Assembly (NCBI GenBank): GCA_025055675.1
Contig: JANWWT010000001.1
Span: 558,001 to 622,000, forward strand
Direction: 5' to 3'
Origin: Pseudanabaenaceae cyanobacterium SKYG29
GTDB taxonomy: Bacteria > Cyanobacteriota > Cyanobacteriia > Pseudanabaenales > Pseudanabaenaceae
DNA: 64,000 nucleotides
In this document: positions 38,934 to 42,201 of the stretch, in pieces
Position numbering within the stretch: position 1 is the first letter of the stretch
Layout of the letters: each line of letters starts with the position of its first letter
Notes under the pieces: model-generated
The model's input: only the letters and a program-made list of their open reading frames with translations
Told to the model about the DNA's origin: nothing
Databases searched by the model: none
Program-made: the position numbers and the translations under genes

Positions 38934-41903
38934 ATGGTTGTTACAGGGGTTCCCGTGTTAGGAGGTACTTTGGCACAAGCTAGGCAGTGCCTGGGAGCTA
39001 TCATTAGCGGCTTGATGCTAACTGCCTGGGGGGGGAGAGTGGGTAGTCAACCGATCGTGCCTGATGGCAGTACCAGTACCGCTGTGGAGGCAGGAAATGT
39101 AGTTGTTCCCACTAACCTCAACTCCATTCGGGGCACAAATTTATTTCATAGCTTCGATCGGTTCCATGTTCCCCTGGAGGGGGTTACCTTTAGCGTCGGC
39201 ACTACGGGTATCAACGGTGGGCGGATCACCAATATTTTTAATCGTGTCACAGGGAATGAGCCTTCCTCCATTTTGGGCACCATCCAGACAGCACGGGAGT
39301 TCCCCATTGCCAATTTCTACCTCCTCAACCCCAATGGCATAGTTTTGGGCAGCAACGCGCGACTGGATGTGGGAGGGTCATTTATCGCCACCACTGCCAC
39401 GGCGGTGGGATTTAGTGGGGGTGGTAGTTTTACCACCGATCGGCGCAACACCAATTTCTTTGCCGGTTCTCCCCTCACTTTGCAGTTTTCTGTAGAGCAA
39501 CCGGGGGCAATCATCAACCAAGGGCAATTGGAAGTCAAAACAGGACAGGACATCATCTTAGCGGGAGGCACAGTAGTCAGTCCCAGAACCCTGGTGGCAC
39601 CAGCAGGCAAAGTTGATGTGGTAGCAGTAGCAGGGAATGCCACTGTCACTCTGCGCGCGCCGGGGTCAATTGTGGGGTTAGAGGTGCGGGCCGGCAGTTT
39701 AGCTCCCCAGTGGTCAGGCAAAATAACAGAACTACCCCAACTGGCACAATGGTTGACAGGGGCATCCAGTCGTCCAGAGGCGCAGGAATTAGCCGTAAAT
39801 CCCGATGGTTCCCTAGAATTGTTACCCCAAGGACGATCGCCGGGCTTAGGGACTCTGCTCCTGGGCAATGGTAGGCTTGAACCGATTGGAGAATTGGTAG
39901 TACAGCCGGGGGATGTGATTTTGGGTTCGATCGCGGCGGCTGATATTCAAGCCATTGCCAGTAACAATTTGGCAGTATTTGTCCCCAATATCCAGGGACG
40001 GGGTAGTGTGCTCTTGCAAGGGCAAAATCGTCTGCTTCTGCGGGATACTTTGGAGACAGCAGCAGTAATTGGGGCAGGTAGTAACCTCACCTTCAGGGGC
40101 GATCGGGAAATTGATATTTTAGCCCTCAATCATCCCACCAGTCCCATGAACAGTGGTGGAAATATTACCTTCCGCAGTGATGGCAAAATTCTAGCTGATG
40201 GCTTTTTTACCGCCCAGGGCACGATCGGGGCACGGACTGTCACCAACAATGTTACGGGTTTGCTCAGTGCCGTAGAATTTGAGGAGGTGCAGGGGAATGT
40301 GCGCTTTTTACCCCTCGATCAGCAGAGACGAACCCTAACCGAAAATCTATTAGCCCATCGTAATCTCGATCGTATTGCCCGCAATACCACTGACCCTGTG
40401 CCTGTAGCCCCCCCGCCCTCACCCCCTACTCCAGCGGCAGGAGATAGTTTGACCACCCTTGCTGTGCAAGCCAGTTTAAGCAGTCTCCATCTTTCTACCG
40501 CTACTCCCCTCCCCCTTGCCCTCGACCTGTTATTGGAACGGGGGAAGATTCTGGAAGCCCAGCAGACTTTGGATTTGGCAATTTTGGGAGAACTCGATCG
40601 CTATCTTGGCAACATCACCCCCAAAGTTAACAGTCAAGTTTTAGCTCAACTCAATCCCGACCAACAAAAACTCTACCAGCAGTATCAAGCATTGCAGGGT
40701 AAAGAGGGGGAACTGGGCCAGTTTCTGGCTAGACCTGATGTCCAAAGACTAGCGCAGCAAGTTAGGGAGATCAATCTGCAACAACTGCAAAGGGAATTAG
40801 ACCAACTCGATCCCCAAGCAGCGATCCTGTATCCTGTCCTGCGGCAGGACCGAGTGGAAATGATCTTGATTGCCCCTGGTATCCCTCCCCTGCGGCGCAC
40901 TAGCTACATTTCCCGTGCTCAATTCCTAGAACTATTGCAAAATTTTCGCTACAGCCTCGAAGCTATCTACGATGTGGAAGCTAATCCCCAGGGTCAGGGA
41001 CAAGCTCTTTACCGCCATCTCATCCAGCCCTTGGAGGACATTTTAGAAGCTCGGCGCATTCGTACCCTCTTCTATGTTCCCACTGCCCAACTTCGTTATG
41101 TGCCCTTGGCTGCTCTCCACGATGGTCAGCAATGGTTGGGGCAACGTTTCCGTATCAGCACAATTACCAGCGCCAGTCTGCAAAACTTTACTCCCCGTCT
41201 ACCCTCTCTACCCCGTCTACTCGCAGGTGCTCTCACCCAAAGCCAAACGGTCAACCTGGGTGGGCGGCAATTCCTGTTTGCTGGTTTGCCCTCAGCCAGA
41301 GGGGAAGTGAACTACCTCACCAGTCTGGTTAAAAATAGTAGTAAATTATTTGACCAGGATTTCTCCCCCCTAGCGGTACAGGGACAAACCCGATCGTTTA
41401 ACTGGCTCCATCTGGCTACCCATGCTGTATTTTTGCCAGGGACTCCTGCTGATTCCTTTATTGTGTTTGGCAATGGGGAACGACAGAATTTTCAGGATTT
41501 ACGGCAGTGGGACTTGGGCAATGTAGATTTAGTAGTGCTCAGTGCCTGTGAGACGGCAGCGGGGGAGGTATTAGGAAATGGGGAAGAGATTTTGGGGTTT
41601 GGCTACCTGATGCAGGAGCGGGGAGCAAGGACAACGATCGCCTCCCTCTGGTCGATTTCCGATGGCGGCACCCAGGCATGGATGGAAATTTTTTACACTC
41701 TCCTAACCAGTCAAAACCTCAGTGTTGCTGAAGCAGTTCGCTTGACCCAACAGATTTTGATTACGGGGGATTTCCGTCCCCTAGGAGAAAAAGCCCAGGT
41801 TTTACAACAGCGTCTGCGCTCCCATTTACCCCCCTCTACCCTAGAAAATCTCAGCCATCCCTATTACTGGGCACCGTTTCTGGTGATCGGCAACGGTCTC
41901 TAA
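38934..41903 (+). CDS. Filamentous-hemagglutinin N-terminal domain fused to CHAT caspase-like protease
   Basis: A 989-residue secreted protein. After an N-terminal hydrophobic stretch, residues about 40-170 match the two-partner-secretion/FHA domain (NIFNRVTGNEPSSILGTI, FYLLNPNGIVLGSNARLDVG). Beta-helix-like sequence continues to about 450. A Pro-rich hinge and helical region precede a CHAT domain (about 690-985) with catalytic His830 in LHLATHAVF and Cys872 in VVLSACETAAGE. CHAT domains are caspase-family peptidases. No TpsB transporter is in the window. The fusion recurs in cyanobacteria but its biological target is unknown. Confidence 0.88.
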   Translation: MVVTGVPVLGGTLAQARQCLGAIISGLMLTAWGGRVGSQPIVPDGSTSTAVEAGNVVVPTNLNSIRGTNLFHSFDRFHVPLEGVTFSVGTTGINGGRITNIFNRVTGNEPSSILGTIQTAREFPIANFYLLNPNGIVLGSNARLDVGGSFIATTATAVGFSGGGSFTTDRRNTNFFAGSPLTLQFSVEQPGAIINQGQLEVKTGQDIILAGGTVVSPRTLVAPAGKVDVVAVAGNATVTLRAPGSIVGLEVRAGSLAPQWSGKITELPQLAQWLTGASSRPEAQELAVNPDGSLELLPQGRSPGLGTLLLGNGRLEPIGELVVQPGDVILGSIAAADIQAIASNNLAVFVPNIQGRGSVLLQGQNRLLLRDTLETAAVIGAGSNLTFRGDREIDILALNHPTSPMNSGGNITFRSDGKILADGFFTAQGTIGARTVTNNVTGLLSAVEFEEVQGNVRFLPLDQQRRTLTENLLAHRNLDRIARNTTDPVPVAPPPSPPTPAAGDSLTTLAVQASLSSLHLSTATPLPLALDLLLERGKILEAQQTLDLAILGELDRYLGNITPKVNSQVLAQLNPDQQKLYQQYQALQGKEGELGQFLARPDVQRLAQQVREINLQQLQRELDQLDPQAAILYPVLRQDRVEMILIAPGIPPLRRTSYISRAQFLELLQNFRYSLEAIYDVEANPQGQGQALYRHLIQPLEDILEARRIRTLFYVPTAQLRYVPLAALHDGQQWLGQRFRISTITSASLQNFTPRLPSLPRLLAGALTQSQTVNLGGRQFLFAGLPSARGEVNYLTSLVKNSSKLFDQDFSPLAVQGQTRSFNWLHLATHAVFLPGTPADSFIVFGNGERQNFQDLRQWDLGNVDLVVLSACETAAGEVLGNGEEILGFGYLMQERGARTTIASLWSISDGGTQAWMEIFYTLLTSQNLSVAEAVRLTQQILITGDFRPLGEKAQVLQQRLRSHLPPSTLENLSHPYYWAPFLVIGNGL

Positions 41904-41946: not shown

Positions 41947-42201
41947 ATGTTTTTACTGCGTAATCCCCGTTACAATTGGCTAATCCTGCTGGCGAGTCTG
42001 ATTTACCTGATTAGTCCCCTCGACGTTTTGCCAGATATTTTCCCCCTCCTTGGTCAGGTGGACGACTTTTTATTACTGGCATTTCTCATCACTAACCTGT
42101 TGCAAAATCTCTCCCAATTCTTCCTACAACCACAGAATAGCCATAGCCGCAGTGAAGAAGAGATTAAAACGATCGATGTTGATGCCACTACCATCAACTG
42201 A
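41947..42201 (+). CDS. DUF1232/YkvA-like small membrane protein
   Basis: An 84-residue protein with the DUF1232 signature YLISPLDVLPDIFPLLGQVDDFLLLAFL. Two hydrophobic helices and an acidic tail follow. Members are widespread, of unknown role. It lies 2 bp before murQ in the same direction and is probably co-transcribed. Confidence 0.85.
   Translation: MFLLRNPRYNWLILLASLIYLISPLDVLPDIFPLLGQVDDFLLLAFLITNLLQNLSQFFLQPQNSHSRSEEEIKTIDVDATTIN

What the first reader, a model, noticed from the sequence alone, without database searches (positions are those of the whole stretch)
38934..41903. Secreted FHA-CHAT fusion with intact caspase-like dyad
An FHA/TPS secretion domain and beta-helix carry a CHAT peptidase (His830, Cys872) that would be exposed outside the cell. 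No partner TpsB or substrate is nearby. CHAT peptidases are often effectors in conflict or cell-death systems, so an extracellular one deserves attention.
Basis: partly seen in the sequence, partly recalled or inferred. Interest (0 to 1): 0.5.

Follow-up and report, generated by a model that had tools for sequence, protein, structure and literature searches.

The report
Secreted caspase-like protease in cyanobacteria
A cyanobacterial gene joins a two-partner-secretion export domain to a caspase-like peptidase; relatives show that exported peptidases of this kind often sit beside, and were fused more than once to, large secreted surface proteins, which suggests that they act on those proteins in the cell envelope.

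Summary
The gene is real: 989 aa (38934-41903, +), Pfam TPS secretion domain at residues 41-251, CHAT peptidase domain at 688-987, dyad His830/Cys872 intact. The dyad is kept in 88 of 88 CHAT domains aligned. Cys872 is the only cysteine left after the signal peptide. The CHAT half folds like Csx29 and separase (VIA Z 26.5 and 24.8). The genome does hold TpsB partners; an orphan TpsB 250 kb away is closest to the TpsBs beside TPS-CHAT genes in 4 of 4 loci of a related genus. The fusion is not unique: nine intact TPS-CHAT proteins in eight genomes, whose CHAT halves fall into two distant clades, so fusion happened more than once. Of 38 TPS-centred cyanobacterial regions, 15 also encode a separate CHAT protein (controls 1 of 20); in 11 it lies directly downstream of the TPS gene on the same strand, often with DUF928 and CHASE2 genes near. 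Most such CHAT proteins have signal-peptide-like N-termini. Best reading: an exported, catalytically competent peptidase that processes TpsA-type exoproteins in the envelope, in fused form. The conflict-effector reading is not supported: no defence hit, no conserved immunity gene, no variable tip. No substrate is known.

The parts
38934..41903 (+). TPS-CHAT gene (989 aa from the ATG)
   Evidence: orthologues
38960..38972 (+). AGGAGG (38960-38965) followed by an in-frame TTG (38970-38972): possible true start, giving a 977-aa protein
   Evidence: read from the sequence; inference
38934..39044 (+). Sec-type signal peptide region (residues 1-37), ending before QPIVPDG
   Evidence: crude scan; aligned orthologue signal peptides read
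39054..39686 (+). TPS secretion domain (residues 41-251)
   Evidence: Pfam PF05860 E 9.3e-31; similar to HxuA 4i84 E 5.3e-05
39699..40253 (+). Continuation of the presumed beta-helix (about residues 256-440)
   Evidence: shared with the 432-aa CHAT-less paralogue; fold inferred, not modelled with confidence
40365..40514 (+). Proline-rich linker (about residues 478-527)
   Evidence: sequence
40449..40814 (+). Alpha-helical segment before the peptidase (about residues 506-627)
   Evidence: helices in the model, blocks with pLDDT about 60-94
40995..41894 (+). CHAT peptidase domain (residues 688-987)
   Evidence: Pfam PF12770 E 1.1e-54; fold match to Csx29 and separase
41421..41423 (+). Catalytic His830 codon
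41547..41549 (+). Catalytic Cys872 codon, the only cysteine after the signal peptide
41947..42201 (+). 84-aa DUF1232 ORF directly downstream; adjacent gene, probably not part of the system
   Evidence: found next to the orthologue in G165 only

Best explanation
The protein is a TpsA-type exoprotein that carries a catalytically competent caspase-like (CHAT) cysteine peptidase at its C-terminus. Proposed course: Sec export into the periplasm; the TPS domain docks on a TpsB outer-membrane transporter, most likely the orphan TpsB at G000:C1:849502-851055; the N-terminal part moves out and folds at the surface; the CHAT domain follows, or stays at the outer membrane or in the periplasm as a C-terminal domain. 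There it acts as a processing peptidase on TpsA-type exoproteins: itself, the CHAT-less 432-aa TPS paralogue, or the 1199-aa TpsA. It is the one-chain form of a partnership that many cyanobacteria encode as two neighbouring genes, tpsA and an exported CHAT gene, often with DUF928 and CHASE2 genes. Shown by computation: domains, dyad, fold of the CHAT half, purifying selection, gene association, repeated fusion. Inferred: export route, cognate TpsB, activity, substrate.
For: Domains over Pfam cut-off. Dyad in 88 of 88 aligned CHAT domains. One cysteine (Cys872) in the 952 residues after residue 37; likewise a single catalytic cysteine after the start of the TPS match in G165, both G098 proteins and G007, i.e. 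5 of 9 intact fusions; the other 4 have one extra Cys pair; control ORFs have 0.92% Cys. CHAT half matches Csx29 Z 26.5, separase Z 24.8, secreted gingipain RgpB Z 17.3. Orphan TpsB 44-46% identical to the TpsBs beside the fusion in 4 of 4 loci of genus g2, and of the several TpsBs in each of these 4 genomes that one is the best match. CHAT in 15 of 38 TPS-centred regions against 1 of 20 controls (Fisher p 0.004), DUF928 14 of 38 against 0 of 20, CHASE2 13 of 38 against 0 of 20. CHAT directly downstream of a TPS gene, same strand, in 11 of 38. Fused CHATs fall in two far-apart clades. TpsA-adjacent CHATs have signal-peptide-like N-termini in 16 of 18 by a crude scan, against 37 of 155 control ORFs.
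Against: No substrate or cleavage site was identified, and nothing here shows proteolysis. The window gene has no CHAT, DUF928, CHASE2 or TpsB neighbour of its own. The TpsB grouping has moderate support (87/73). G306 has a frame-broken TPS-CHAT but no TpsB match at 1e-30 (its genome is 74% complete), while G226, G272, G038 and G284 have a close TpsB without a demonstrated fusion. The gene is frame-broken in three relatives: G296 (same record as M5B4), G306, and G088, where it is split by an IS-like insert, so it is dispensable there unless the first two are assembly errors. The window's CHAT belongs to another clade than most TpsA-adjacent CHATs. The TPS regions were hand-picked from a list, not drawn at random.
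Confidence: 0.5

Rival explanations
1. Surface exoprotease acting on outside proteins (nutrition, matrix turnover or competitor proteins), in the manner of gingipains: the TPS part displays the enzyme, and the substrates are not TpsA proteins.
For: Extracellular clan CD peptidases exist, and gingipain RgpB matches the model at Z 17.3. Export and an intact dyad are as well explained.
Against: It does not explain why separate CHAT genes sit directly beside tpsA genes (11 of 38 regions) nor the repeated fusion.
Confidence: 0.2
2. Contact-dependent or other conflict effector: the CHAT domain is a toxic tip delivered into neighbours.
For: TpsA proteins of CDI systems carry C-terminal toxins, and caspase-like domains occur as toxin or releasing domains in polymorphic toxins (passages of PMC3482391).
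Against: That survey lists HINT as the processing protease for T5SS and names T7SS, PVC, TcdB/TcaC and T2SS for caspase toxins. The tip is conserved (CHAT 89% identical, dN/dS 0.07). The downstream DUF1232 ORF is kept in one other genome only. PADLOC E 0.014. Related CHATs are separate exported proteins beside tpsA genes.
Confidence: 0.12
3. Non-proteolytic role: the CHAT domain is a binding or regulatory module of an adhesin, and its activity is not needed.
For: Nothing here shows activity; caspase-like repeats without catalytic residues occur in other toxins.
Against: The dyad is kept in 88 of 88 domains, and Cys872 is retained as the sole cysteine of an otherwise cysteine-free exported chain.
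Confidence: 0.1
4. Cytoplasmic or misassigned protein: the TPS domain is a relic and the protein is not exported.
For: No TpsB beside the gene; a weakly typical signal peptide with an uncertain start.
Against: TPS domain under purifying selection (dN/dS about 0.06), signal peptides in orthologues, near-absence of Cys, TpsB of the matching kind in the genome.
Confidence: 0.04

Closest known systems
TpsA exoproteins of two-partner secretion (FHA, HMW1, HxuA)
   Same: N-terminal TPS domain and signal peptide; TpsB (ShlB/POTRA_2) partners in the genome
   Different: Carries a C-terminal caspase-like peptidase; the likely TpsB gene lies 250 kb away
TPR-CHAT / Csx29 of Craspase (type III-E CRISPR)
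   Same: CHAT fold with His-Cys dyad preceded by helices; Z 26.5, 351 residues at 3.4 A
   Different: No TPR repeats found by Pfam, no CRISPR neighbours among the flank products scanned, exported instead of RNA-guided
Separase
   Same: Same peptidase fold, Z 24.8 over 316 residues
   Different: Eukaryotic cohesin protease; no secretion domain
HetF of Anabaena (cyanobacterial CHAT protein)
   Same: Cyanobacterial CHAT protease; the active site is needed for its function (passages of PMC8406250)
   Different: TM/TPR protein at the divisome, with no TPS domain in the domain plan of its figure legend
DdvA, transmembrane anti-sigma factor (8rot, 8rw5)
   Same: CHAT-like C-terminal fold, Z 19.9; the PDB chain is named CHAT domain-containing protein
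   Different: Membrane anti-sigma factor; no paper on it was listed in the library search
Gingipains RgpB and Kgp
   Same: Secreted clan CD cysteine peptidases, Z 17.3 and 17.1
   Different: Other secretion route (recalled: type IX), other sequence family

Membership tests
TpsA (two-partner secretion exoprotein) | N-terminal TPS secretion domain | tested here: met
   PF05860 E 9.3e-31, 108 bits against a cut-off of 33.5; TIGR01901 NPXG domain E 6.8e-17
TpsA (two-partner secretion exoprotein) | Sec signal peptide before the TPS domain | tested here: met
   Hydrophobic segment and cleavage-like site by a crude scan; same in orthologues by eye. No dedicated predictor was run
TpsA (two-partner secretion exoprotein) | TpsB partner in the same genome | tested here: met
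   Two ShlB + POTRA_2 proteins; the orphan one resembles those beside TPS-CHAT genes
TpsA (two-partner secretion exoprotein) | Right-handed beta-helix | tested here: inconclusive
   Model pLDDT under 50 for 26-503; sequence match to HxuA only
TpsA (two-partner secretion exoprotein) | Found outside the cell, dependent on TpsB | not testable with these tools
   Needs localisation experiments
CHAT peptidase (PF12770, caspase-like) | CHAT profile over the family cut-off | tested here: met
   186 bits against 24
CHAT peptidase (PF12770, caspase-like) | His-Cys dyad | tested here: met
   H830/C872; 88 of 88 domains
CHAT peptidase (PF12770, caspase-like) | Caspase-like fold | tested here: met
   Predicted model against PDB: Csx29 Z 26.5, separase 24.8
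CHAT peptidase (PF12770, caspase-like) | Proteolytic activity | not testable with these tools
   No assay possible
Craspase TPR-CHAT (Csx29) | TPR repeats and Cas7-11 partner gene | tested here: not met
   No TPR hit in the protein; the four neighbouring products scanned with Pfam are not Cas proteins, the other flank ORFs were read by eye only. The rest of the genome was not searched for Cas7-11
Polymorphic toxin / CDI TpsA | Variable toxin tip with an adjacent immunity gene | tested here: not met
   CHAT tip conserved; downstream DUF1232 ORF found again only in G165 among the loci held
Known anti-phage defence proteins (PADLOC) | Significant match to a defence model | tested here: not met
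   Only BovA at E 0.014, over part of the model

The most novel reading that the evidence does not exclude
Cyanobacteria possess a widespread, undescribed envelope system in which an exported caspase-like CHAT peptidase, encoded beside or fused to a TpsA exoprotein and accompanied by TpsB, DUF928 and CHASE2 sensor proteins, controls the maturation or release of surface exoproteins in response to outside signals; the window protein is its one-chain form.
Probability: 0.4. Interest if true: 0.68.

Novelty: new variant of a known kind. Interest (0 to 1): 0.52.

Why it matters
CHAT peptidases are best known from inside the cell (Craspase, separase). If exported ones are tied to two-partner secretion across cyanobacteria, this gives a function-guiding context to many CHAT and DUF928 proteins of unknown role (DUF928 occurs in 94 of 116 sampled genomes), and a testable maturation step for cyanobacterial surface proteins. 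The single remaining cysteine makes the enzyme easy to test: one substitution removes the only thiol.

Tried and rejected
Defence filing: PADLOC gave BovA at E 0.014 for the window protein, and E 8.1e-08 and 3.6e-07 (local matches) for two of three relatives scanned; this reflects the shared CHAT domain, and the gene context does not support defence.

Polymorphic toxin: rejected for lack of a variable tip and of a conserved immunity gene. The DUF1232 ORF beside the gene was followed and found next to one orthologue only.

Programmed frameshift: the frame is broken in three relatives within the N-terminal half (G296/M5B4, G306, G088). Looked at because two breaks fall close together; one is an IS-like insert with inverted ends and the others are draft assemblies, so I treat them as decay or assembly error, not as a shared mechanism. 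Intact copies exist in other genomes.

Beta-helix by structure: not settled; only three sequences covered the N-terminal half in the alignment that the tool allowed. The absence of a fold match for that half means nothing.

'Other CHAT' proteins (12 of 44 with a signal peptide by the scan) are not usable as a contrast, because many of these loci start inside the gene. Eleven N-termini of close relatives from longer loci, printed, look exported by eye, three of them with a lipobox-like end; nine of these 11 reach a mean hydropathy of 1.9 or more, against 32 of 89 control ORFs.

Counts dropped: loci L123 and L124 were fetched for DUF928/TpsB pairs and left out of the 38 TPS-centred regions. The regions were picked by hand from the printed part (sorted by score): 18 around long frames (nearly all printed frames of 1200 aa or more; at least one such row, in G020, was not taken) and 20 around frames of 800-1200 aa. 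Several come from the same genomes. Five regions are shorter than 12 kb, one of them 4.6 kb, which lowers the chance of seeing neighbours. Control regions are arbitrary round coordinates in 11 genomes, most of which also gave TPS regions.

Literature: ten searches. None listed a paper on a TPS-CHAT fusion or on a tpsA-CHAT-DUF928-CHASE2 cluster. One passage (PMC5587647) reports CHASE2 and DUF928 in one Nostoc cluster with WD40 genes. Most subscription papers, and preprints, are not in that library. That public annotation already labels such proteins as CHAT or hemagglutinin-domain proteins is recalled, not checked.

Full report
What is there. The ORF at 38934-41903 (+) encodes 989 aa with two Pfam domains over cut-off: TPS secretion domain (41-251, E 9.3e-31) and CHAT (688-987, E 1.1e-54). 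The start may be the TTG at 38970, which follows AGGAGG, rather than the ATG (sequence; inference). The neighbours are an alpha/beta hydrolase on the other strand upstream, and an 84-aa DUF1232 ORF and a sugar-isomerase-domain (SIS) gene downstream. The window lies in a 2.56-Mb cyanobacterial genome; the nearest named relatives are an uncultured Pseudanabaenaceae bin and 'Cyanobacteria bacterium M5B4'.

Is it functional? The dyad is present in 88 of 88 CHAT domains that I could align, most of them found by similarity to the window's own domain. After residue 37 the protein has a single cysteine, Cys872. The same holds, counted from the start of the TPS match, in the fusions of G165, G098 (two proteins) and G007; the four fusions of genus g2 have three cysteines, a C-x5-C pair and the catalytic one. 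Control ORFs over 400 aa have 0.92% Cys, about nine in a chain of this length; TpsA-like ORFs without CHAT have 0.20%. I read this as an exported chain purged of thiols that keeps its nucleophile.

Fold. The model of the CHAT half is confident (505-989 mostly above pLDDT 70) and that of the N-terminal half is not. VIA-align 2 gives Csx29 Z 26.5 (351 residues, 3.4 A), separase Z 24.8, the anti-sigma factor DdvA Z 19.9 and gingipain RgpB Z 17.3 (Foldseek). By sequence, the TPS domain matches HxuA (E 5.3e-05).

The missing partner. The genome has two ShlB/POTRA_2 TpsB proteins: one at C3 beside a 1199-aa TpsA, and an orphan at C1:849502-851055, about 250 kb from the gene. Fusions of the same plan in four genomes of genus g2 (G023, G076, G117, G108; the genus is unnamed by the tool, and I take it for Pseudanabaena) all have a TpsB gene next to them (4 of 4). 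The orphan TpsB is 44-46% identical to these four and 33-39% to the others compared, and it groups with them in a tree (support 87/73, under the tool's star level). In each of those four genomes, with 4 to 9 TpsB matches, the best match is the one at the fusion locus. Exceptions: G306 has a frame-broken fusion and no match; G226, G272, G038 and G284 have a close TpsB, while a fusion there is not shown because contigs end.

Not a one-off. Intact TPS-CHAT ORFs: the window, G165, G098 (1089 and 1797 aa), G023, G076, G117, G108 and G007, nine proteins in eight genomes (Pfam confirmed both domains in 6 of 6 relatives scanned). In G296/M5B4, G306 and G088 the frame is broken; in G088 by an insert with inverted ends and a transposase-like ORF without a Pfam hit. 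DUF928 lies next to the fusion in G007, G088 and G306, that is 3 of 12 loci; TpsB in 4 of 12. A CHAT-less paralogue of the N-terminal half (432 aa in G000) has matches in G000, G165 and G296.

The wider pattern. I took 38 regions centred on TPS genes from the 116 genomes and 20 control regions, and scanned them with profiles built here. CHAT: 15 of 38 against 1 of 20 (Fisher p 0.004). DUF928: 14 of 38 against 0 of 20. CHASE2: 13 of 38 against 0 of 20 (tests). TpsB: 8 of 38 against 0 of 20. In 11 of 38 regions a CHAT ORF lies on the same strand within 300 nt of a TPS ORF, downstream of one in all 11. The window's own genome has the same set at C3: TpsB, two Uma2-like genes and TpsA, then DUF928, a CHASE2-kinase and a TPR-CHAT on the other strand. 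Selection was by hand and regions are not independent; these are indications, not a survey.

Exported CHAT. TpsA-adjacent CHAT proteins have signal-peptide-like N-termini in 16 of 18, DUF928 proteins in 23 of 25, control ORFs in 37 of 155, by a crude scan. So the peptidase looks extracytoplasmic in the two-gene form too.

Origins. In a FastTree of 86 CHAT domains, the g2, G007 and long G098 fusions sit with the TpsA-adjacent CHATs (branch support 99), while the window, G165 and the short G098 fusion sit in the other large group with free-standing CHAT proteins. The label 'fused' needs 4 changes. At least two origins, or CHAT swaps within TpsA proteins, are implied. Repeated joining of the same two partners is the best evidence that they work together.

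Mechanism, with likelihoods. Exported by the TPS route: about 0.85. Catalytically active: about 0.8. Main substrates are TpsA-type exoproteins, in cis or trans: about 0.5. Whether the CHAT domain is finally outside or kept in the periplasm is open; a title in the reference list of PMC5422565 says that the prodomain of the TpsA protein FhaB stays inside the cell.

Prior knowledge. The survey of polymorphic toxins lists HINT as the T5SS processing protease and gives other routes for caspase-like toxins (PMC3482391, passages). HetF is a cyanobacterial CHAT protease whose active site matters, acting at the divisome (PMC8406250, passages). Hmw1B-type TpsB proteins are numerous in cyanobacteria (PMC4104836, passages). 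Ten library searches listed no paper on this fusion or cluster; the library is partial.

Verdict. The gene is a variant of known kinds (a TpsA with a CHAT peptidase) that opens onto a broader, apparently undescribed association.

Noticed in passing
L108:6766-11118 and L113:6894-11321 (G051, G022): Single ORFs of 1451 and 1476 aa that carry a TPS domain at the N-terminus and POTRA_2 plus ShlB barrel at the C-terminus: TpsA and TpsB in one chain, each followed by a CHAT gene, with DUF928 and CHASE2 near.
   Followed up: partly
L008:6026-7589 (G000:C3): Two closely similar Uma2-like genes in tandem between tpsB and tpsA in the window's own genome (Pfam run on the first only).
   Followed up: no
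L090:7475-8900 (G088:C5): IS-like element with matching inverted ends and a transposase-like ORF without a Pfam hit, inside the TPS-CHAT orthologue.
   Followed up: partly
window:32375-34843 (-): 822-aa protein with a 5'-nucleotidase C-terminal domain and RTX calcium-binding repeats at the end, likely another secreted enzyme.
   Followed up: no
window:41947-42201 (+): 84-aa DUF1232 ORF directly downstream of TPS-CHAT; 83% identical copy beside the orthologue in G165, not found in the other loci held.
   Followed up: yes
L024:6651-9509, L025:6645-9509, L027:6735-9602 (Nitrosomonas): CHAT proteins related to the window's CHAT whose N-terminal hydrophobic segment ends in a lipobox-like C, so probably lipoproteins (by eye).
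   Followed up: no
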